NCBI GenBank assembly: GCA_022385805.1
Contig: MU277751.1
Coordinates: 65,827-107,155 of the forward strand
Origin: Pilatotrama ljubarskyi
Lineage: Eukaryota; Basidiomycota; Agaricomycetes; Polyporales; Polyporaceae
Direction: 5' to 3'
DNA length: 41,329 nucleotides
Shown: piece after piece, positions 3,627-36,686 of the stretch
Position numbering within the stretch: position 1 is the stretch's first letter
Layout: the number at the start of each line of letters is the position of its first letter
Notes under the pieces: model-generated
The model's input: only the letters and a program-made list of their open reading frames with translations
Databases searched by the model: none
What the model was told of the DNA's origin: nothing
Position numbers and translations under genes: made by a program

Positions 3627-3806
3627 TATTCAGCTCGCTGTGCCGGCCCATGACACTGCGCTGATCCAACGTTCTCGCGCACTCCAGACGCCCGAAAACC
3701 CGTCCTCAGCCCGCCCTTTTCTACAGCCAGGAACGCAAGATGTCGCGTAGCACCGATAACGTCTTCTACCAGAACGATGATGCGTCTCCCATCGATTGTC
3801 TCCACA

Positions 3807-3812
3807 TATAAG
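3807..3812 (+). promoter_or_regulatory. TATA box of the nitroreductase gene
   Basis: TATAAG within 'ccacatataaggccc' lies 135 bp before ATG 3942 but downstream of an in-frame ATG at 3777. Its position argues that transcription starts after 3777 and that 3942 is the real start. Confidence 0.5.
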
Positions 3813-3941
3813 GCCCTCCCCCGCCCCTCCCTCGGCCTGCTAAGATCATCCACACGCCCCGCACTTCTCTCGCACTTCCGCTCTCGAACTTCTTCCTCAG
3901 CCACCACTTCTTCTCCGGTACACATCCAGCACCGAACGAAC

Positions 3942-4680
3942 ATGTCTGGCTCTGCTGCCTTCTTCGACGCGGTCAAGAACCGTCGCACCTACTACGCCAT
4001 CACCTCCGAGTCGACCATCCCCGACTCCAAGATTGAGGAGATCGTCGCGACCGCGGTCAAGCACGCGCCCTCCTCCTTCAACAGCCAGAGCAGCCGCGTA
4101 TGTACCTCCGTAATGGTACTCATCCAAGCTTGCAACTCACGTACTATCCTCTAGGCTGTCCTTCTCCTGGGCGAGGAGCACAAGAAGCTCTGGGATATCA
4201 CCCTGAACGTGCTCAAAGAGATCGTCCCTGCCGAGCAGTTCCCCGCCACCGAAGCCAAAATCAAGGGCTTCGCCGCCGGCCACGGCACCGTCCTCTTCTT
4301 CGAGGACCAGACCGCCGTCAAGGACCTCCAGACCAAATTCCCTCTCTACCAGGACCGCTTCCCCACCTGGTCCGAGCACGCTAGCGTAAGTAACCCCCTC
4401 TCGCCTACCTCACCCTCACCCGAATCGGCCCTGACACGGAATCGATATACAGGCCATCCTGCAGTACATCGTCTGGACGGCGCTCGAGGCAGAGGGCCTC
4501 GGCGCCAGCCTGCAGCACTACAACCCGCTCATCACCGCGCAGGTCCTCTCGACGTGGAAGCTCCCGACGACTTGGGTGCTCGTCGCCCAGATGCCGTTCG
4601 GCAAGCCGGCCGCCCCTGCCGGCGACAAGTCCTTTGCTCCCATCGAGGGCGAGCGGTTCCTCGTTTTCGGCAAGCAGTAG
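3942..4680 (+). CDS. Nitroreductase-family oxidoreductase (Frm2/Hbn1-like)
   Basis: It is an FMN-dependent NAD(P)H oxidoreductase of the fungal Frm2/Hbn1 type, a family linked to lipid signalling and redox stress. Exons are 3942-4097, 4155-4385 and 4453-4680, all in phase 0, giving 204 residues, the usual family length. Family marks are 'FFDAVKNRRTYYAITSES' at the N-terminus (FMN-binding Arg pair), 'HAPSSFNSQSSRAVLLLG', 'GTVLFFED', 'QYIVWTALEAEGLGASLQHY' and the C-terminal 'WVLVAQMPFGKP'. ATG 3942 was chosen because the TATA box lies between it and the upstream ATG 3777. That extension would add 55 residues rich in Arg and Ser resembling a mitochondrial presequence. The protein is most likely cytosolic or nuclear if started at 3942. 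Confidence 0.9.
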
Positions 4681-18328: not shown

Positions 18329-20332
18329 ATGAGTTTCGCCTCCCTCCGCGCTTTACACGCCACCATTGGTCATGCAATCGACGACCTCGAGCGCGTCTAC
18401 CGCGAGCGCTCTCAATCCGAGTCCCTTGACTTCCCCCGCCTTGAAGACACCTACTATGCTAATGCTCCTCACTCCGCGGAAGAGGAGCTTGCACAGCAGC
18501 TGAATAACGATCCCGCTGTGTCCCTCGCGTCCAAACGCATTGTTGCCGCGTGCGGTCAGCTCAGCGCTACCGTCAACAAGCCTTGGTATGGCCTCATGGA
18601 GGCCATTCAAGCCGTATGACCCACGCTTGTCAAACATGCTATCGACTGACGTTAGACATAGGGACAACTCTCCGCAGCGATCCGTTTCATAGAGGCCGCT
18701 CACATACCGGAGATCCTGCGAGAAGCTGGTCCTCAAGGATTGCACGTCAAGGATATCCAACGATCTGTAACGGAACTGCGTCCCAAGAATGCGCTTCCTG
18801 ACCCGGCCATATTCACTCCTCCCAGACTGGGTATTCATTCACCGTAGCCTTAACCTGATAGTGTAAAACTGACGAAGATGCGAAAGGGCATGTGCTGAGA
18901 CTGCTCGCCACATCGCACTGGCTGCAGGAGGTCGCGCCGGACGTGTTCGCGAATAACAGACGATCATCGTATATCGACTCTGGCAAGACTCTGGAACAAC
19001 TGCGCAACATGTGAGCTTGGACAAGGCTCTTTGCTTGTATCGCGCTCACGTTTCACATAGACCTAGCAAGAAGTACCTTGACACGGATGGCGTAGCGGCC
19101 TTCGTCGGCGTTGCGTGAGTTGACACCCTTATATCAGCGATACCCCAGGCTGACGTTCTGTGGTTGCAAGAGGAGACGAAGCCTTCAAGTTCATGGCATA
19201 CATGACCGAATGGCTCTTGCCAGACACTCGGACGGGCAGCCTCATTGTCGACGCGAAGGGTGGATTCGATCGTGATGGGAACGGGCAGGCTGAAACACAG
19301 GAATCTGCCGCAAAGAAGGAGAGTGCCATCGTCCAGTACACCGCTCCTTTCAATCTCGCCTTCGACACGAAGCTCGGCTTCTTCCCCTGGCTCGAGCTTC
19401 CGGAGAACCGTAGCAGGCTGGAGCGCTTTGGCCATGCGATGACCGGAACGCGCCAGTGGGAAACGAAGGAGGGCATTCTCTTCGGTCAGTTGTCTAGTTG
19501 TTGCTCACTGAGCATTCTCCCTGACCATGGAGATGACACAGGCTTCCCGTGGGCGGAGCTTCCGCCTGATTCTGTGCTTGTCGACGTGGGTGGAGGGATC
19601 GGCTCGACGTCTCTGACGGTCGCGCAGGCCCATCCCTACATCAAAGTGGTCGTGGAGGACCGGCCGCAGGTGGTCGAGGTCGCACCGACAGTGAGTGCCA
19701 TACGACTTCGCTGCATGATTGCAAGGGAGCGCCCTGACGTCGCTCAACTTCATAGTCTTGGGGTCCCAACTACGCCCCGCTGTTCGAGTCTGGACGCATG
19801 ACTTTCCGCGCCCGGGATCTGTTCGCGCCATGGGAGCCCCTTGCGTCTGGGAAGGCTCCTGATGTATTCCTGATCCGGCTCGTCCTGCATGACTGGCAGG
19901 ATGAGGACTCTCGCAAGTGCGTACATTCGCTCCGAGGGTCAGGTATTAGCTGCTGAACTCGTCTTTTACAGCATTCTGCGTCAGCTCCGATCTGCGGCTG
20001 GACCGAACACCAAGCTCCTCATCGGCGACATGCTCCTCCCGTACGCGTGCGACAGCGAAGACGCCTTCGTTAGGGAAGACTCGCCGCTCCTCCCTAATCT
20101 CGGCGTGGCGAACATCCACGGCTATCTCATTGACATCATGGTACGTCCTTGTCTTCCTGTGGAACGCTAGATTGCCCAAAGAGTCGCGCGGCAGATGATG
20201 GGTATGTTCGGTGCCAAGGAGCGCACGGTAAACGAGATGTCCGAGCTGGCCCTTTCGGCTGGGTGGAAGATTCAAACGATCAGGCGCTCGCCCGGGTCGT
20301 TGTGGGCATATACCACAGCAGTTCCTGTGTGA
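18329..20332 (+). CDS. SAM-dependent O-methyltransferase (COMT-like)
   Basis: It is a cytosolic small-molecule O-methyltransferase of the plant COMT / fungal sterigmatocystin-OMT type. Exons are 18329-18613, 18662-18830, 18878-19010, 19061-19114, 19171-19484, 19542-19690, 19756-19916, 19972-20140 and 20195-20332, about 523 residues. The exon 2/3 boundary is uncertain. The N-terminal dimerisation region has 'HVLRLLATSHWLQEVAPDVF'. The SAM motif is 'VLVDVGGGIGSTSLTVAQ'. The catalytic His-Asp motif is 'IRLVLHDWQDEDSRKILRQL'. It closes with 'GMFGAKERTVNEMSELA' and 'SAGWKIQ'. The other phases agree. The nearest metabolic neighbour is the FAD monooxygenase at 24.9 kb, so a shared pathway is conceivable but unproven. 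Confidence 0.9.
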
Positions 20333-20729: not shown

Positions 20730-21028
20730 GTATTCACGGACATGGCAAGTCTTGATCGTGGCAACTCATGCTGACATTCAATCCCATCCTGAGGCTGCCA
20801 CACTGCGACAAACGCCTATCTAAGCGTCGCGTTGAGCGGTCGCCGTATTATGCTGCATAGGTCGTGGTTGTCAGGGATGCGCTCAATATCGCCATGCACT
20901 GCCTGAAAGTTTGGGGCATTCATGCGAATGGGACAAATACACATGGATCGATACAAACATAAAGAATACATACTCTTTCGGGGTCAACTACTTCTCCACC
21001 GTAACGCAAGTTTCATTACGCCTTCGCT
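20730..21028. other. Intergenic, no gene seen
   Basis: This AT-richer spacer contains the 3' end of the minus-strand Thr-rich gene. No feature was recognised. Confidence 0.5.
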
Positions 21029-21683
21029 CTACGCAGCGGTTTGAACCGCGCGTATGCCGCGGCCATTACGATTGACCGTCGTCTCGCCGACCGTGCTGGT
21101 CCGGGTCACGGTTGCGGTATCAGTGTCGGTCGTGAAGCTTGTCGTGGTGATCGTGCGGGTCGACGTGTCCGTCTCGGTCGTGCGCAGCGTCGACGTGCGC
21201 GTTATCGTGCTCGTGCTCGTCGTCGTCGTCGTCGAGCGCGCGGTGCTCGTGCGGGTCAAAGTCACCGTAGCCGTGTCGGTGGAAGTCGACGTCGTGGTGC
21301 GCGTCGCCGTCGCGGTGTCGGTCTCGGTGTTCGTGACGGTGATGGTGAGAGAAATCGTGATCGGATCGCGCTTGACGAGCCCGTGCGGATGCCCGATGTC
21401 GTCGCGCCGGCGGTCGGGCGTGGCGGTGACCGTTTCCCTGTCGGTAATGGTGAAGGTGACCGTCGGCGAGTAGGTCTCAGTCACCGTCGAGACAGTGGAG
21501 CAGGGCGAGGCGGCATTGGCATAGCCGGGGTTGGAGGGGTATCCTGGGTACCCGAAGCCCGGATACTCTGCATAGATGCGTTAGACATGGAGAGGAGTGA
21601 TAGTAAGCCGGCTTACCCTGTGCTTGCACACCGACGCAAAGGGAGGCGAATGCGGCGATGACAGCGAACTTGATGGAAGGCAT
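21029..21683 (-). CDS. Secreted Thr-rich protein A with dibasic processing site
   Basis: The function is unknown. Exon 1 is 21683-21617 and exon 2 is 21567-21029 (201 residues); the intron falls just after the signal peptide (MPSIKFAVIAAFASLCVG). After a Tyr/Gly/Pro-rich segment and a single Cys, the order is 'TETYSPTVTFTIT', a basic linker ending Lys88-Arg89, then about 110 residues in which nearly every second residue is Thr ('TDTATATRTTTSTSTDTATV'). Lys-Arg after the signal peptide is a standard Kex2 site, so a Thr-rich chain may be released. The alternating Thr-x pattern suggests beta structure or heavy O-mannosylation. It is homologous in order, Cys and dibasic site to the divergent gene at 23280. 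Valine-rich frames on the + strand are shadows of its Thr codons. Confidence 0.8.
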
Positions 21684-21767
21684 GTCGCTGGATGTAAGGG
21701 TGGGTGCAGAGCAGATAGGCTGGGTCGGGTGTGCGTTTGATGAGGTGTAAGAAGAGGATTGTCGCAG

Positions 21768-21775
21768 CTTATATA
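21768..21775 (-). promoter_or_regulatory. TATA box of Thr-rich gene A
   Basis: TATATAAG on the minus strand, 85 bp before ATG 21683. Confidence 0.6.
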
Positions 21776-23172
21776 CCGGTAGGCTTCCCCCGTGCGGATG
21801 GTGTCAAGCGGACGCACGACCGAAGCACGCGCCTGAGAGTGGTGACGCATGAAAGACACTTGCTCTCAAGTCGAAGGCCCCTCTGCTGCAGACGACGTCG
21901 CCGTCATCGCTGGAGCAGCGCGCCCTCCACTTCGTCGTTCGATCTCTCCCGCGGCCAGAGCAAGCGTCTTCCGTGCCGAGAGACGTGGTCCAGACTACAG
22001 GTGAGTTGGACGTCGGATGCTGAGGCGAAGACAGACCTACCCGTCCCGCGACACACCGACAGAATCCGTGCTCGACCTGACAGCGGCTGCGGCAGCTCTG
22101 TCGAGCCCTGAGCAGATCATCGTTACGGTGAGCTCAGCAAACAGAATGGCGGATCAAGGTGCTTACCGAGCATGGTTAGGACCGTCGCCGCCTTTGGACG
22201 AGAGGGCGCTGGCGGAAAGAAAAAGGCGGGAGTCCTTAGGCAGGCCAAGGGATCGTCGTCGATGTTGTGATTTGTACGGCTCCGCTTGCATCGGCCCCGA
22301 CGGAAGCGCTTCATCTGCGTCCGTCTGCCTCCGCTGTGCAGATTGCTCGCAGCTAGGCAGCTTGATACCTAGGAAAGTGAACACAGCGGGACGATTGGAG
22401 TCCAAACCGTAGGCTTGGTTCCTGAGTCGTCCGACGATCGATCGGAATGTGAGCAAGACAAGCAATGACGCGTGCGGCCGGGTCGAATCGAAACGGATCG
22501 CATGGAGTGGTAGCGAGGGGTCCATGTTGACGCTTGATGAGAGGAGCTTTAGGAGGCATGCGGGCGACATGGACGCAAAGTTCAGATGCAATGTTAAAAA
22601 TATGTGACGCAATGGCACCCCAGGCGCATATTCTCCATCCGCTGGACGACTAGTACCAGTCCAGAAGCACGTAACGCTGTCAAGTCGCGGGACCTCTCAC
22701 AGGAACCTGTCAAATGGCGGATGCAGATGTTCCTCAGCAAGGACGCGTCATCGTGATATAGCGCTGCAGACAAAAATCTGTGAACATCATTACATCCCGA
22801 CGTCGCCAAGACATACGCACCTTGACATGTTCCGCACATGATACCTCCCGTTGCGGACGGTTCGCGCTGATCATGAACATGGAAGTCTTGACATTGCCTT
22901 GACAGGCGGCATCGCGGATGGACGTCTGGCCTCAGCATCGGCAGTGGTACGTACGCCGATCCTAAGCATCATCGGGGTCTAGACACGTTCCTGGGAGCGC
23001 AAGCTCAGCCGGCGCGCTTGTCATCGGAGGCGGCGGGTAGCGGGTCGGGCGTTCACGAGAGCGCGAGGCGGGACTTGTCCGCTCGATGACGCTCATCGCC
23101 TGCGAAGTCAGTCGTTACTCTGCGGATTGGACATGGCCAGTGTGAAGGCGCGGCCGCGTGAGTCGCTGGGGG

Positions 23173-23178
23173 TATAAG
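23173..23178 (+). promoter_or_regulatory. TATA box of Thr-rich gene B
   Basis: TATAAG in 'gggggtataagaac', 107 bp before ATG 23280. The spacing is close to that of gene A. Confidence 0.6.
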
Positions 23179-23279
23179 AACAAGGAGGAATCCGCTCTGA
23201 GATCTCACCACCGCGCTTCCTCTCTCATACTCGCCTACGCCTCTCATCACTGAGCGAACGCATCGACCATCTCGACACC

Positions 23280-23904
23280 ATGGTTCACATGAAGTTCGCG
23301 CCAATCTTCGCGCTTGCGCTTGTTGCCTGCGTCGGCGCCGTGGCTGACAGTGAGTTCGCATATTCGAGAGTTCGACGCCGAACTCACCTTGCTTGCAGAC
23401 GCGCCTGTAGCACGCCAGGATTCGTGCGACGTCGAACGCACCGAGACGGTCACGTCGTACGATCCGACGTTCGCCCTCGACACCACAACTGTCACCGTTA
23501 CCGAGACAGCCAACGCGCGCGCTTTCTATCATCGCGGGGGGGATCACCGCGACAACGTTAACAAGAAGCGTGAGGTGACCATCACCCTGACGTTCACGGA
23601 CACCCAGACGAGGACTGCGACCACGACTACGACCACCACTCAGACGGTGCCCGTGACGGTGACGCGTACGAGCACGTCTACGTCTACTTCCACGACGACG
23701 TCTACTATCACGGCCACGACCGTGCGGCGGACGACGGAGACTCCGACGGTGACGAGCACTCGGACCATCACGTCGACCGAGACGGACACGGACACCGAGA
23801 CTGGCACCCGCACGGTGACCAGCACGACCACCGAGTTTACCACCGTCACTGTACCGACGTACACCTTCGACCCCCGCACTACCGCGACCCGCCAGAGGGG
23901 CTGA
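23280..23904 (+). CDS. Secreted Thr-rich protein B with dibasic processing site
   Basis: The function is unknown; it is a paralogue of the protein at 21029-21683. Exons are 23280-23349 and 23399-23904 (191 residues), with the intron at the same place, right after the signal peptide (MVHMKFAPIFALALVACVG). A single Cys precedes 'RTETVTSYDPTFALDTTTVT', then a His/Arg/Asp-rich linker ends in Lys-Lys-Arg at 79-81. After it comes 'EVTITLTFTDTQTRTATTTT', which lines up with 'DPITISLTITVTNTETDTAT' of protein A. The Thr-rich chain runs on to 'PTYTFDPRTT' and a basic end. No GPI signal or second Cys is seen, so free secretion or wall linkage by glycans is more likely than membrane anchoring. Confidence 0.8.
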
Positions 23905-24885
23905 GCGGAGGTTCAAGTTTGCACTACCCCTTGCGACGAAGAGTTGATTATATGTTAGCCAGTAGTTGAAAGGAACAGACTTGCCTCACTGTAACATATC
24001 ACTTTGTAAATTTATGGTACTACGATCAATCCTCCTTGTATAGTAGTTGTCGGGAGAGTGAGCAGGTCAAAAACCTCCAATGCCGAACAGATGACGAACG
24101 GTTCTATAACCTTTGAAGTAAGGAAGGCCTGAGAGTAAAAAGTGCCTTCTACAGTTGGGTTGCTTGATTACGTCATACAATACCATACACTCGCACCTTC
24201 TTACTACTCAGTCAACCCCTCGGGCAACCCTCGGGTATCCACTGCGCCTTCGCTCGTTACCGCACCCTCTGTGACTATTCATATGGATCCTGATTTTTCT
24301 AAGCCGCAATCAGTGTTGGTCGTCGGTAACTTCTTGTGCAGAACCCCTTCGAAATTTACCCCAAATAAGGCTGGGCCGGGGCAGGTACGGCCGTTCTTGT
24401 GACCTCCCAGAACGGGTCGCTCGTCTGCGGCCTCCGTGATCAGTCACTCCACCCGCTCATTCGCCCTTGGCATGACCACCCGGACCTCTCATTCGCAGCA
24501 TCCCCGCCGCGAGTCATACCGAGGAAGGACTGGTGAGTCTTCTTACGTCCGCTACAATAATAGTCACGACTAATCTGTACCGATTTTCACAGACTCTGCG
24601 CGCTGTGCCCGCGAAAGGGAACTCTGATACCGGCGCGGTGGAGGCGTCCCCATGACTTCCCACGTCCGCGGCTTCGCGAAGGAGTTAGGTTTGGCCCGCC
24701 TTAGTTTGGCGACGCGACGCAGCATAGGTCATGAGGGTCGCGGTGGACGTGGGATGATGGGTTATTCCGTTCTTGCACCTGAGTGTGAAGATTGCGATCG
24801 CAGCAGGGCACAGCTATGGGGTGTATATGGGGTACGCTGTCGTTGCTGACAGCTAACGTTATCTGGCCCCAGTCTCTTCATCACC
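23905..24885. other. Upstream region of the monooxygenase with two intron-like segments
   Basis: Two intron-like segments occur: 24533-24592 (GTGAGT, CTAAT branch-like motif, TTTTCACAG) and 24832-24872 (GTACGC, GCTAAC, CCCCAG), the latter ending 13 bp before ATG 24886. They look like 5' UTR introns of the monooxygenase. Open frames at 24142-24402 and 24652-24849 have no motif. Confidence 0.45.
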
Positions 24886-27563
24886 ATGCCAGGCGGCAGT
24901 ATCTCTCGCGTATCCGAGCCCAACGCTGGCTCTGAGCCTGCCCCCTATAGCTTGGGCGATTTCTGCATCGACGAGTACAAGCCTATAAAGGTCATCGTCA
25001 TTGGTGCAGGCTTCAGTGGTATCACTGCAGGCGTCAGGTCCGTCGACCCGGCCACCTCTTTGTGCCTGCCCATTGATGCCCATTTTTGCAGGTTCCCTCA
25101 GAAGATACCCGGCGTCGAGCTAACGATCTACGAGAAGAGCGCAGGAGTCGGTGGTACATGGTTCAACAACAAGTACCCGTAGGTGTCCTTCAGAATGCAT
25201 GCACTCAGCGGTTGCTGACTATCACCCCCAGAGGGCTAGCGTGCGACATTCCAGCACACTGCGTACGTACCAACTTCGGATTATCGCGAGAACTGCACTC
25301 ATGACGGCACTCCAGTATCAGCTTACGTTTGAGGAGAAGGTAGGGTGGCGTCAGAGCGGGAAGGGCCTGGTCCGCTCATCACTGCCACGTCCACAGAGAG
25401 ACTGGTCCGCATTCTACGCGCCAGGCCCCGAGATTCGGCAATACCTCGAAAACGTCGCCGAGAAGTACAAGCTCATGCGCTACATCAAGCTCCAGCACGA
25501 AGTCGTGCACGCGCAATACGACGAGCCCGCGGGCAAGTGGCGTCTCCGCGTTCGCCGGCCGAACCCCGACTCTGGCGTCCTCGAGGAGATCGAGGACAGC
25601 GCGGACGTGCTCGTCACGGCCATCGGGTCGCTGAGCCGCTGGAGGTGGCCGAACATCGAGGGCCTGCACGACTTCAAGGGCGAGCTGCACCATAGCGCGG
25701 GGTTCGACCCGAACGAGAACACGTGGCAGGAGGTCGCCGAGGCGTGGAAGGATAAAAAGGTCGGCGTAATCGGTGTAGTACGTCCCTTGCTGTGATGTGC
25801 GGCGGCTGCACGGCTGAACGGTTGAGGCAGGGCTCGAGCGCCCTGCAGCTCGTCCCGGCTCTGCAGCCGCGGGTGCAGAAGCTCGTGAACTACGTCAGGG
25901 GCAAGACCTGGCTCGCCGTGCCCTTTGCGAGCAATTCGTTTGCAGAGCTACTGGGCCGCGACCCTAAGAGCGCCGAGGACTGTGAGTGCATGTGGTTTTG
26001 CTTCGCGTCCGCAGCCTGAGCTAACATAAGTGATTAGACAAGTTCACCCCGGAGGAGCTCGAGCGCTTCAAGAACGATCCTGAGTTCTACAAGAACTTCA
26101 GGTTCACCCTCGAGACTGATATCAACGTACGGCTCTTGCTTCCCTCATCGTCAACGCTAATCCCCACTAACTGGACATGCACAGAGCCTGCACTCATCGA
26201 CACTGCGCGGATCGCCGATGCAAATGCAAGCCCGAGAAGCCTTCCGGGAGAATATGGTCAAGAAGCTCGCGAGGAAGCCCTGGATAGCAGAGAAACGTAC
26301 GCATTAGGGCACCTCCGTACTTGCCCCTTCTTCTCGCACGCTCACCGTGGCTCCCGCCGCCCTGGATATGCACAGTGATCCCTGACTTCCCCGTCGCGTG
26401 TCGCCGGCTCACCCCCGGGCCCGGTTATCTGGAAGCGCTGTGCGAAGACAACGTGAGTAATCCTGCGTGGGAGACGCTTGCCGCTGTGGGCTTACGGTTG
26501 AACCCGCGCGGGGGCTTCCCTTCTAGGTTGACTTTGTGTCCACGCACATCAAACGCATTACGGAGAAGGGCATTGAGACCGTCGATGGTCAGCATCAGGA
26601 CCTCGACGTTATTTTCTGCGCGACGGGTACGTACACTCTCCTAAGCATGACGGTAGAGCTCATCCAATGACCTTGCATTCTACGTAGGCTACGACACGTC
26701 CTTCCAGCTGCCGTTCAAGATCATCGGCCGCGACGGCCTCGACATCAACGACAAATGGAAGCCGCACCCGGTCTCGTACCTCTCCGTCGCCGTCGACGGG
26801 TTCCCGAACATGTTCATGTCGCTGGGCCCGAACTCGGGCGTCGGCTCCGGCTCGCTCCTCGCTCTGATCGAGTACCAGATCATGTACGCGGTGCAGGCAA
26901 CGGCGAAGCTGCAGCGCGAGCGATACAAGAGCATCGAGGTCAAGCCGGAGGCGCTGCGGGACTTTGACCAGTATGTGGATGTGCGTGCATGCGTTTCTCA
27001 CTCGTTACACGGGAGAGGATACTGACTGGCTTCCCGGACAGGCTTACTTCCCTAAGGTAAACAGGGCGGTACGACTGAGATTCAAAGGTGGCTGACGCGT
27101 TGCGATAGTCGGTGTACAGCGAGAAATGCCGTTCATGGTACAAGATGGGCCAGGAGGAAGGTAGAGTCGTCGGACTCTGGCCAGGTCAGAATCTGCGCAA
27201 ACCGCTTCTCACGTTATCTGCTTACCACATCTTCTGTAGGATCTACCCTCCACGCTCTCAAGGCGCTCACCCATCCTCGATGGGAGGACTACAACTACGA
27301 GCTCGCGGACCCAGTCCAGAACCGGATGTACTGGCTTGGTGACGGCCAGACTCATAACGAGAAGACGCTCACCGGAGACAGTGCGTCTCTCATGCCTCTT
27401 TGATAGGAGCTTTTGAAACGTATTCTAACCCGACTCTACAGGGGCTTGGTACTTGCACGAGCCATACCTCGATGTACCTCCAGGTAGGTTCAGCTTTGAC
27501 GCAGCGGCCACTGTCAGAAAGACGTCCTGACGTTTCTGTCCATCTGCAGTTCCGGCGGATTGA
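24886..27563 (+). CDS. FAD monooxygenase, Baeyer-Villiger-like, with C-terminal frameshift
   Basis: It is a flavin monooxygenase inserting oxygen into ketones or similar small molecules. Sixteen exons: 24886-25037, 25092-25178, 25232-25262, 25316-25339, 25397-25777, 25831-25981, 26038-26126, 26185-26296, 26376-26452, 26527-26626, 26688-26980, 27042-27056, 27109-27184, 27240-27382, 27442-27483 and 27550-27563. Domains: FAD Rossmann 'VIVIGAGFSGI' (near residue 40), 'GVGGTWFNNKYPGLACDIPA', 'RDWSAFYAPGPEIRQYLE', the BVMO-like fingerprint 'FKGELHHSAGF' (Phe where Trp is usual), the NADPH Rossmann 'VGVIGVGSSALQLVP' and 'ATGYDTSFQLPFKIIG'. In exon 14, after 'GDGQTHNE', two extra bases (GA in GAGAGA, about 27359-27364) shift the frame. 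The expected continuation 'KTLTGDRAWYLHEPYLDV' and its splice phases appear two bases out. About 30 C-terminal residues are affected. Confidence 0.88.
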
Positions 27564-34014: not shown

Positions 34015-36686
34015 ATGTTCTCGTCCGCGCATTCGTCATATCCGCGCACGGATGCGCGTCATCCGCCCACATCGCCTCTGCCTCTGCCTCTTGACCGTTC
34101 TGAAGGATACCCACCCCAAGGTGCTGGCACGTCTTGGTCCCCGGCGTCTGGCTCCGCTCTCCGCCCAGCCCATCCAGATACCCCCTGTCCAGCCAGATCC
34201 GGACAGCAGATCAGCCATCCTTCTCCCGCCCACTCCTTTGCTCTTGAGCGCACGCCCTCTTGCTTGTCTGCCCCCTCGACGCCCCGCAGTACCAGCACCG
34301 GTACCAGCAGACTCCGAGCCCTCCGACATCAAGACCAGCTGCGTTCCTCCGGCGTGGCAGCACGCCGTGCGCACCAGCGCGATAGGTCTGCTTCAGCCAT
34401 GTCAGCCTCTCTGCCCTCGGTCGCTCCCCTGCCTTCCCTGCCATCTCTGGCGCAATCGAAGCTCACTGCGCTGCCTCTCGTCGACATGGAGCACGACCGT
34501 CTCGCGCGCGCATGCGGACAGGGGCCCTTTCTGCAGTTCACCGACCCCTTCTCTACCTCCCGACCTCAGGGGTCGCTAGCCAACGATCCCCACGCGTGGA
34601 AACGTTCGACAGGCGAGGAGCTGTCTCATTCGGACGACCTGGTGCTCGACGTCTCGTTCGCACTGAGCTGGGGGCTACGGCCCCGCGCGACGTCCGTGCG
34701 AGTGCCCCAGCGCCGCTCTGCTCGCCTACCGTCGCGCCCGCGATCCGCCTCGCAGCCGGCCAGCATCCCGGTCTTCGCGCCATCTAGCCCGCGTCCGGTG
34801 TTGCGCTCCTTGAGAGACGCACTAGACCTGCAGGGCATGCAGCTAGAAGACTGCCTGGACGTTCAGTCGGTCTTCGAACGCTGGGACGCGCCGTCCGATC
34901 GCGCAGGCCTGGGCCGGGGCGAGGCCGCGCATCACGGTATGTCTGTTCCTGTATATGAACTCCGCGTATGATGGGGAGTATTAAGTGTTGGTTTTTTTTG
35001 GTTGGTCAACAAGCGTTCGGTTCGCCTGTGGGTATGGCAGTCAAGTGTGCGTCGATGTCGACTGTGCTGGGCGGCTACCAGCATCAGATCCCGTGGGTCG
35101 TGTACGCCTGCGTTGAAGAGCTAAATCGCACAGGTACGCATTTTCAACGTTGGCTCCACTGAATCAACCTGATTATCGCGCGAAAGGCATCTACCAACCT
35201 GGCTTGTTTCGCGCAGTGCCGAATCGCATACGCCTCGGGAGGCTGGTAGAGGCGTTCGACGTGTGCTTCGACGCGTGCACCGCCCCGTCTGCCATCGAGG
35301 AACTCTGTCCGAGGATGGCGCCGACACAGTCCACTACGCGCGCATCGCTCCGCAAGGAGTCGATGGCAGACATCTGTGCGCTTTTGAAGAAATACCTGGA
35401 CCTCCTCCCTGAGCCGCTCTTAGACGCCAATCTCACATCCGCGCTCCACTTGCTTTGCGTCCAGCCTTCCATTGCCAGCGAGAGCGAAGCAGCGGATGAT
35501 TGCGACGGCGGCTACTTCGCGTCGCGCTCGCGCGCCCGCTCTGTCCCGGCTCTCGCCTCACATTCTGAAGCTACATACGGCATTCCCTTTGACATGCCTA
35601 TGACGCCTAGCGAGCACCGTGACGCGCGCGCTATGCTCGAAGCACCTCAGGTTCTGTATGCCCAGCACCTCCTGCGTCTCGCGCCGCCCGCCTCCCTCGG
35701 GCTCCTCGCGTACCTCCTCGGATTCTTCACCCAGCTCCCGCTGTGCCCGGACAACGGGATGGACTTCACGGATGTCGCGCGGATGTTCGGGCGTGTGCTC
35801 GTCGGCGGCCAGGGTGTAGACGTGCAAGTCATGCGCGAGTGCGTACTCTGGCTCCTCGAGCGGTGGGCGCGCGTCTCCGACGGGCTGTTCGACCTCGCGG
35901 CCGGCTCGGAGGACGACGCACACGCGGAAAGCGCGCCAGCGTCTACGTACAGGTCGACGTTCGCGGCGATTCCGGCGTACTCCTCCCCGCCGTCGGGCTC
36001 GAGTGCGACTACTCCGCGACACGCGCGCCATCTCAGCGCGAACGAAAGCGGGACGGGCTCGCTGCGCCTCCAGATGCCGTACGATCCGGGGCTGCGCGAA
36101 CGCGCGGCGCGGCCGCACTCGACGTCGGGGTATTCTGACGGCTCGTCCGTGACCTCCGCGAGTCTTGAGACGGACGAGTTGTCTTCTCCGGTCTTCGCAT
36201 CTCCGGATCCCGACGGTATAAAGCACGCCATGAGCTTCGAAGTCGCGCAGCTTCCTGTGAGAGCTTTCGACCCGTTCGACCGCCCGACGCCCATAGTGCC
36301 CAGCCTCGCGCTAGGTGAGCATTCTCTCGATACTCTCGCATGGCCACATTTCCGCAGAGGCTGACGCTTCTTCAGTCGACAGGGAGTACGTATCCTGCCC
36401 GCCCTCACCCAGGCGCTACTTCTCGTATACGCAGCTCGAAGATGCGCAGGCGGACTCGGCGTTCCCTTCACCCCCGAGCTCTGTGCGCTCGCTCGAGCTC
36501 GAGAGCTCGTGGGCAGGCTTCTTGAGTCGAGGCTCGGCCTCTCCCCTGGGCTCCATGGAGCAGCCGTATCTTGGGGGGCTGTCACCCTCTCGCTCTCCCG
36601 GTGCCTGGTCTGAAGGTTTCCGGAGTCCAGCCGCGCCGCAGCAGCCTGCTCCCCGTACCTCGGCCACACAGGAGACCGAACAATGA
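34015..36686 (+). CDS. RhoGAP domain protein with Ser/Pro-rich flanks
   Basis: It is a GTPase-activating protein for Rho-type GTPases, acting in polarity and actin control. Exons are 34015-34936, 35014-35133, 35187-36314 and 36358-36686, closing to 832 residues. The first 300 residues are Ser/Pro/Arg-rich and probably disordered. The RhoGAP domain starts at 'IPWVVYACVEELNRTGIYQ' and 'GLFRAVPNRIRLGRLVEAFD' (the candidate arginine finger is in Gly-Leu-Phe-Arg; Ser-Gly after it is replaced). It goes on with 'ALLKKYLDLLPEPLLDANLT', then, after an insertion of about 60 residues, 'LLAYLLGFFTQLPL' and 'MDFTDVARMFGRVLVGG'. The C-terminus is again Ser-rich with 'FDPFDRPTPIVPSLAL'. The start at 34015 is the first ATG; shorter N-termini such as 34399 (MSASLPS) are possible. 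Confidence 0.85.

What the first reader, a model, noticed from the sequence alone, without database searches (positions are those of the whole stretch)
21029..23904. Divergent pair of secreted Thr-repeat proteins with conserved dibasic cleavage site
Both genes share an intron right after the signal peptide, one Cys, a Tyr-x-Pro-Thr segment, a His/Arg linker ending in Lys-Arg, and the start of the mature part (DPITISLTITVTNT versus EVTITLTFTDTQTR), then a chain in which Thr occupies nearly every second position. I know no named family with this layout. By analogy with Kex2-processed fungal repeat proteins such as Ustilago Rep1 repellents, they could form beta-rich surface fibres or a glycosylated coat. 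Two TATA promoters at similar distance suggest co-expression.
Basis: partly seen in the sequence, partly recalled or inferred. Interest (0 to 1): 0.75.

Follow-up and report, generated by a model that had tools for sequence, protein, structure and literature searches.

The report
Paired secreted threonine-lattice proteins, bracket fungi
Two neighbouring fungal genes encode related small secreted proteins in which threonine sits at almost every second position over about 90 residues, a layout kept at nearly fixed length in related bracket fungi and probably exposed by cutting off a front piece during secretion; their job is unknown.

Summary
The gene pair is real. Gene A (minus, 201 aa) and gene B (plus, 191 aa) are divergent, each with a signal peptide, a 49-nt phase-1 intron after it, one Cys, a basic site and a Thr-rich C-terminal domain (112 and 110 aa) in which 43 of 50 and 43 of 55 Thr share one alternation phase. 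Protein searches, limited to scored candidates, found a small family without a Pfam match in Trametes and Lenzites, plus two weaker polypore matches. Across seven A-type proteins the domain is 109-114 aa; 29 of 47 lattice columns are all Thr (14.7 expected) and exceptions cluster. So it is a constrained domain, not neutral low complexity or a tandem repeat. The 'conserved dibasic site' fails: 5 of 12 readable members, A and B included, are dibasic; the other 7 have Arg with Leu or Val at P4, resembling the published expanded Kex2 motif LxxR. Membership of Kex2-processed repeat proteins (Rep1 type) is not met. Best reading: Kex2-matured, probably O-mannosylated, beta-rich extracellular proteins. 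Function (coat, fibre, ice or surface binding) is inferred; both AlphaFold2 models are low-confidence.

The parts
21617..21683 (-). Gene A exon 1: signal peptide MPSIKFAVIAAFASLCVGVQA plus Q and first base of codon 23
   Evidence: signal peptide judged by eye
21568..21616 (-). Gene A intron, 49 nt, GTAAGC...GCAG, phase 1
   Evidence: junction supported by relative P0001
21029..21567 (-). Gene A exon 2, to the stop codon
   Evidence: relative P0001 is 59% identical over 100% of the query
21500..21502 (-). Gene A Cys45, the only Cys after the signal peptide; column invariant in 5 aligned A-type proteins
21404..21412 (-). Gene A upstream tribasic site RRR (RKR in P0001, P0002, P0003)
21368..21373 (-). 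Gene A KR of the putative Kex2-type site LVKR (P4 aliphatic, P1 Arg)
   Evidence: motif from PMC8528282
21032..21367 (-). Gene A Thr-lattice domain, 112 aa
21770..21775 (-). TATATA upstream of gene A
   Evidence: L001:1271-1276
23173..23178 (+). TATAAG upstream of gene B
   Evidence: read
23280..23349 (+). Gene B exon 1: signal peptide MVHMKFAPIFALALVACVGAVA plus D and first base of codon 24
   Evidence: signal peptide judged by eye
23350..23398 (+). Gene B intron, 49 nt, GTGAGT...GCAG, phase 1
23399..23904 (+). Gene B exon 2, including the stop codon
   Evidence: B-type relatives P0005, P0006, P0007
23425..23427 (+). Gene B Cys33, the only Cys after the signal peptide
23563..23571 (+). Gene B putative Kex2 site KKR
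23572..23901 (+). Gene B Thr-lattice domain, 110 aa

Best explanation
A and B are diverged paralogues of a small secreted family of Trametes-clade polypores. Shown by sequence: a pro-protein layout (signal peptide, pro-segment with one Cys, Arg-ending site) followed by a domain of about 110 residues and nearly fixed length, in which Thr is held at one alternation phase. Inferred: a Golgi kexin removes the pro-segment late in secretion, recognising KR or, where P2 is not basic, an aliphatic residue at P4 plus Arg at P1. The released chain is extended and beta-rich, with one Thr face that is either a ladder of O-mannose acceptors or a sheet-packing face, and it is deposited as a structural coat or matrix component on the hyphal surface. 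The pro-segment would keep the Thr face soluble until then.
For: Same intron phase and length. Relatives at E 2.0e-52 to 1.4e-7. Domain length 109-114 aa in 7 A-type and 105-113 aa in 3 B-type proteins, counted from sites that I picked. Mean pairwise identity at lattice columns 0.84 vs 0.42 off-phase in A-type, 0.85 vs 0.35 in B-type; 29 of 47 A-type lattice columns free of exceptions vs 14.7 expected, exceptions concentrated at columns 34, 44, 58, 62, 78 and 94; 35 of 46 vs 29.4 in B-type. A-B off-phase similarity P=0.0025, the floor for 400 shuffles. Leu or Val at P4 in 7 of 7 members without a basic P2, in line with the P4 preference and expanded motif in PMC8528282. Long predicted strands (low confidence).
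Against: No structure: mean pLDDT 53.9 and 57.4, pTM 0.30 and 0.35. No expression, secretome or glycosylation data. No GPI-like tail by eye, so wall attachment is unexplained. Arg at P1 is partly by construction, since I chose the site in each relative by eye; 5 of the 7 non-dibasic sites have Ala and 1 has Val at P2, neither of which is among the five alternative P2 residues listed in PMC8528282 (only P0004's Glu is), and 4 of 7 have Val rather than Leu at P4. The polypore relatives P0015 and P0023 have such a site but no lattice (phase share 0.53 and 0.59). Thr lattices occur in apparently unrelated proteins: 11 of 17 other rows have at least 30 of 40 in-phase Thr in their best 80 residues (a sample biased by the query). 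14 of 21 A-type by B-type pairs do not reach P 0.05 off-phase. The shuffles ignore shared ancestry. B's mature chain has an internal RR at 133-134 that a kexin might also cut.
Confidence: 0.45

Rival explanations
1. Disordered mucin-like spacer: the Thr alternation only provides dense O-mannosylation, with no fold and no assembly.
For: Thr 45-50% of the mature chain; charged residues scattered in the off phase; low model confidence; similar lattices recur in apparently unrelated proteins.
Against: Nearly fixed length, fixed exception columns and strict phase in relatives; a mucin needs neither phase nor register.
Confidence: 0.25
2. Ice-binding or water-ordering protein: the one-sided Thr array acts like the TxT or TxTxTxT faces of insect antifreeze proteins.
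For: Thr phase conserved; TxT and TxTxTxT are reported motifs of hyperactive insect antifreeze proteins (PMC8038014, passages).
Against: No PDB sequence match at E<=1 with the profile; with single sequences up to E 10 only avidin chains and one AaBglC chain for A and a plastid ribosomal protein for B; no convincing coil period; charged off-phase residues.
Confidence: 0.07
3. Secreted effector-like or signalling protein of the Kex2-processed pro-domain (K2PP) layout, acting on competitors or other organisms; in A-type proteins the HPH-containing linker between two basic sites could itself be the released peptide.
For: K2PP-like layout; an upstream basic site plus the [LV]xxR site flank a linker of 10-13 residues with HPH in A, P0001, P0002, P0008 and P0015.
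Against: No Pfam match above cut-off; linker without HPH in P0003 and P0004, and not recognisable in B-type proteins.
Confidence: 0.13
4. Recent low-complexity expansion without selected function.
For: Simple composition; hexanucleotide-like coding pattern.
Against: Only short or weak tandem arrays, mixed Thr codons, lattice kept across species while off-phase residues diverge, splice signals in place.
Confidence: 0.05

Closest known systems
Kex2-processed pro-domain (K2PP) secreted proteins (PMC8528282, passages)
   Same: Signal peptide, N-terminal pro-segment, site ending in Arg with KR/RR or LxxR, in the first half of the protein
   Different: Described for plant-pathogen effectors; here a Thr-lattice chain in polypores, with Ala or Val at P2 in most non-dibasic members, and processing not shown
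Kex2-processed repeat proteins including Ustilago Rep1 (PMC6339444 and PMC7329392, passages)
   Same: Secreted, Kex2-type site, possible role at the hyphal surface
   Different: No repeats separated by Kex2 sites; a single domain after one or two sites
Insect TxT antifreeze proteins (RiAFP, inchworm AFP; PMC8038014, passages)
   Same: Thr at every second position in stretches
   Different: Continuous lattice of about 90 residues rather than short stretches (recalled); no sequence match; pro-segment; charged off-phase residues
Ser/Thr-rich fungal adhesins (Als, Flo; PMC6023273, passages)
   Same: High Ser/Thr content, dibasic motifs and Ile/Val/Thr-rich beta-prone segments are listed features there
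   Different: No GPI-type tail, no ligand-binding head domain, much smaller

Membership tests
Kex2-processed repeat proteins (KEPs) | Signal peptide | tested here: met
   Hydrophobic N-termini of both proteins, by eye only; no predictor was run
Kex2-processed repeat proteins (KEPs) | Internal repeats with Kex2 sites between them (survey cut-off three; PMC6339444, passages) | tested here: not met
   One domain after the site; dibasic pairs only at 75, 76, 88 (A) and 79, 80, 133 (B); no strong tandem array
K2PP layout | Pro-segment in the first half ending in KR/RR or LxxR | tested here: met
   A LVKR, B NKKR. In relatives with sites picked by eye: KR or RR in P0006, P0007, P0009; LxxR in P0001, P0015, P0023; VxxR, a looser form, in P0002, P0003, P0004, P0008
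K2PP layout | Cleavage by Kex2 in vitro or in vivo | not testable with these tools
   Needs the protein
TxT antifreeze proteins | Sequence relation to solved antifreeze proteins | tested here: not met
   no antifreeze chain listed
TxT antifreeze proteins | Regular solenoid coil period | tested here: inconclusive
   Off-phase lags 16 and 18: P 0.34 and 0.05 in A-type, 0.19 and 0.38 in B-type. Lowest of 76 uncorrected tests: A-type off-phase lag 12 P 0.006, A-type lattice lags 10 and 16 P 0.003 and 0.009
TxT antifreeze proteins | Ice binding | not testable with these tools
   Needs the protein
Pfam New_glue (PF21827) | Score above gathering cut-off | tested here: not met
   B 18.7 vs cut-off 31, A none; none of 10 relatives scanned
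GPI-anchored adhesins | C-terminal hydrophobic GPI signal | tested here: not met
   Tails NRNGRGIRAVQTAA and DPRTTATRQRG are polar, by eye

The most novel reading that the evidence does not exclude
A polypore-specific fold or assembly: a pro-peptide-gated, fixed-length chain whose single Thr face spans three or more long strands and, once cut free, self-assembles or orders water or glycans on the hyphal surface, with the divergent A and B paralogues as two components of one structure.
Probability: 0.15. Interest if true: 0.7.

Novelty: new variant of a known kind. Interest (0 to 1): 0.42.

Why it matters
The family is unnamed in the libraries searched, and its main feature, a Thr array kept at one alternation phase and nearly fixed length across species, is a simple testable design for a one-faced beta chain. 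If it assembles or binds ice or surfaces, it would be a new class of fungal surface material with a built-in protease switch. If it is only a mucin-like coat, it is an ordinary lineage-specific secreted protein.

Tried and rejected
Chance or neutral low complexity: disfavoured. A 16-residue coil period, suggested by eye in gene A, was not clearly supported in the family (off-phase lag 16 P 0.34 in A-type; lattice lag 16 P 0.009, uncorrected; B-type neither). A shared set of lattice breaks between A- and B-types is suggestive only: register -9 gives Pearson 0.39 and Spearman P 0.095, the best of seven registers tried, while the direct A-B off-phase register is -7. Further copies in the own genome: only weak matches outside the pair. 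L004 (E 0.043) has stops and looks spurious; L008-L011 have E 0.05 to 1.9 and were not read. P0004 found only gene A; P0015 and P0023 found nothing, which the tool says shows nothing by itself. Promoter repeats: short two-copy matches only. Plasmid collection: no match, as expected for a fungus. Structure-library (fold) searches were not run because both models are below useful confidence. Literature: no paper in the held library names any of six locus tags. The listings (0 to 3 papers each) showed no title or abstract about this layout; of their papers I read passages of PMC6023273 only.

Rows left out of counts: P0005 (N-terminus apparently mispredicted) and P0015 and P0023 (no lattice) were left out of the lattice counts; P0005 was left out of the cleavage-site table. 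Of 27 rows, 10 are polypore proteins that I count as family; of the other 17 I read 10 and scored all 17 for alternation. Searches scored only the 7979 and 7984 candidates sharing most words, so further relatives may exist.

Full report
What is there. Gene A lies on the minus strand (exon 1 21683-21617, intron 21616-21568, exon 2 21567-21029) and gene B on the plus strand (exon 1 23280-23349, intron 23350-23398, exon 2 23399-23904). Both introns are 49 nt and interrupt a codon after its first base, directly after the signal peptide. I set the junctions by eye; P0001 reads through A's junction. The window lies in an unnamed 33.1-Mb genome of 173 contigs. The best relatives are Trametes and Lenzites, so a polypore of the Trametes clade is likely; the species was not determined.

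Family. Protein searches gave P0001 (T. gibbosa, 59% identity over 100% of A, E 2.0e-52), P0002 (T. cingulata), P0003 (Lenzites betulinus) and P0004 (T. gibbosa) for A, and P0005 (T. versicolor), P0006 (T. cingulata) and P0007 (T. cinnabarina) for B. An alignment search added P0008 (T. sanguinea), P0009 (T. versicolor) and the weaker polypore matches P0015 (Polyporus arcularius, 1.9e-5) and P0023 (Cerioporus squamosus, 1.1e-3). Searches scored only the candidates sharing most words, so the list is not complete. The other 17 of 27 rows are other Thr-rich proteins; of the 10 that I read, one is named as a Pochonia and one as a Thermomicrobiales protein, and the rest, without organism names, look prokaryotic to me. 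P0002 and P0006 have the same longest-contig length (1,283,877), as do P0001 and P0004 (707,223). That is consistent with linkage, but order and distance could not be checked.

The lattice. In A, 43 of 50 Thr, and in B, 43 of 55 Thr of the putative mature chain share one phase. The longest uninterrupted alternating Thr runs are 18 and 17, against shuffle means of 5.2 and 6.0. Mature lengths, counted from the sites that I picked, are 112, 113, 112, 111, 111, 109 and 114 in A-type and 110, 113 and 105 in B-type proteins. In a MAFFT alignment of seven A-type proteins, 32 Thr columns are invariant, 30 of them in one phase. With fixed ungapped registers, lattice columns are 84% and off-phase columns 42% identical in A-type (21 pairs), 85% and 35% in B-type (3 pairs). 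A-type has 29 of 47 exception-free columns against 14.7 expected (sd 2.1), B-type 35 of 46 against 29.4 (sd 1.2); the printed share of 5000 shuffles reaching either is 0.0000. The shuffles ignore relatedness, so these are not formal probabilities. Exceptions gather at columns 34, 44, 58, 62, 78 and 94 in A-type, which suggests turns or bulges at set places. No convincing coil period emerged: of 76 uncorrected tests the lowest P values were 0.003, 0.006 and 0.009, at lags 10, 12 and 16 in A-type only. Thr codons are mixed (A: 28 ACG, 18 ACC, 3 ACT, 1 ACA). The alternation itself is not unique: 11 of the 17 other rows have at least 30 of 40 in-phase Thr in their best 80 residues.

A and B as paralogues. 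With the Thr phase held and off-phase residues shuffled, A and B resemble each other at P=0.0025, the floor of the test, at a register shifted by 7. Of 21 A-type by B-type pairs, 4 reach that floor, 7 reach P 0.05 and 14 do not (uncorrected). Within the A-type, A against P0008 is also marginal (P 0.055). The same gene structure and the Cys and Tyr-x-Pro-Thr of the pro-segment support common origin.

Cleavage site. I picked the site in each relative by eye as the last Arg-ending site before the Thr domain, so Arg at P1 is partly by construction. Of 12 readable proteins (A and B included), P2 is Lys or Arg in 5 (A, B, P0006, P0007, P0009). The other 7 have Ala (5), Val (1) or Glu (1) at P2 and Leu (3) or Val (4) at P4. 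[quoted passage not shown] So Ala at P2 is tolerated at best. In A-type proteins an upstream basic site (RRR in A, RKR in P0001, P0002 and P0003, KRR in P0008) precedes it, so two cuts could free a short linker; this holds HPH in A, P0001, P0002, P0008 and also P0015.

Structure. AlphaFold2 with 10 and 9 sequences drew three long strands (A 6-31, 35-60, 66-88; B 5-26, 30-51, 59-74) at mean pLDDT 53.9 and 57.4 and pTM 0.30 and 0.35. This is too weak to claim a fold. PDB sequence searches gave nothing at E<=1 with the profile; with single sequences up to E 10 they gave 15 avidin chains (best E 0.14) and one AaBglC chain for A, and a plastid ribosomal protein (E 1.3) for B.

Known families. KEPs are defined by internal repeats with Kex2 sites between them, at least three in one survey (PMC6339444, passages), which is not met. 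In Coprinopsis, knock-outs of kex genes, but not of kep genes, had growth and fruiting defects, which the authors ascribe to impaired processing of other proteins (PMC9769878, abstract and passages); proteins like these would be candidates for such substrates (inference). Insect antifreeze TxT motifs (PMC8038014, passages) are a functional lead only.

Neighbourhood. A methyltransferase-type reading frame (PF00891) lies at 19154-19801, and sub-cutoff NAD-binding and FMO-like matches at 24850-25792. Nothing links them to the pair.

Verdict. A real, unnamed, apparently lineage-restricted family of probably Kex2-matured secreted Thr-lattice proteins. The layout class is known, the domain is not. 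Function is inferred.

Noticed in passing
19154-19801 and 24850-25792 (+): Reading frames with an O-methyltransferase match (PF00891) and sub-cutoff NAD-binding/FMO-like matches flank the pair; possibly part of a metabolic gene group.
   Followed up: no
21374-21403 (-) and P0001, P0002, P0008, P0015: A short linker with His-Pro-His between an upstream basic site and the [LV]xxR site, kept even in P0015, which lacks the Thr lattice; could be a released peptide or a pH-sensing pro-segment.
   Followed up: partly
21005-21658 (+) and 23056-23985 (-): Long open frames of 218 and 310 aa antisense to genes A and B; the one opposite gene A has no Pfam match, the one opposite B was not scanned. Probably a by-product of the Thr codon pattern.
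   Followed up: partly
P0012, P0013, P0014, P0016, P0018, P0022: Apparently unrelated proteins carry long TxTxT stretches too, so the alternation seems to recur independently.
   Followed up: partly
35117-36361 (+) and 3654-4151 (+): RhoGAP (PF00620) and nitroreductase (PF00881) matches above cut-off in the window.
   Followed up: no
C-termini of A, P0001, P0002, P0008, P0009: A short shared tail, Arg-Ala-[Leu/Val]-x-Thr-[Ala/Gly], which might mark a C-terminal trimming site (seen).
   Followed up: no
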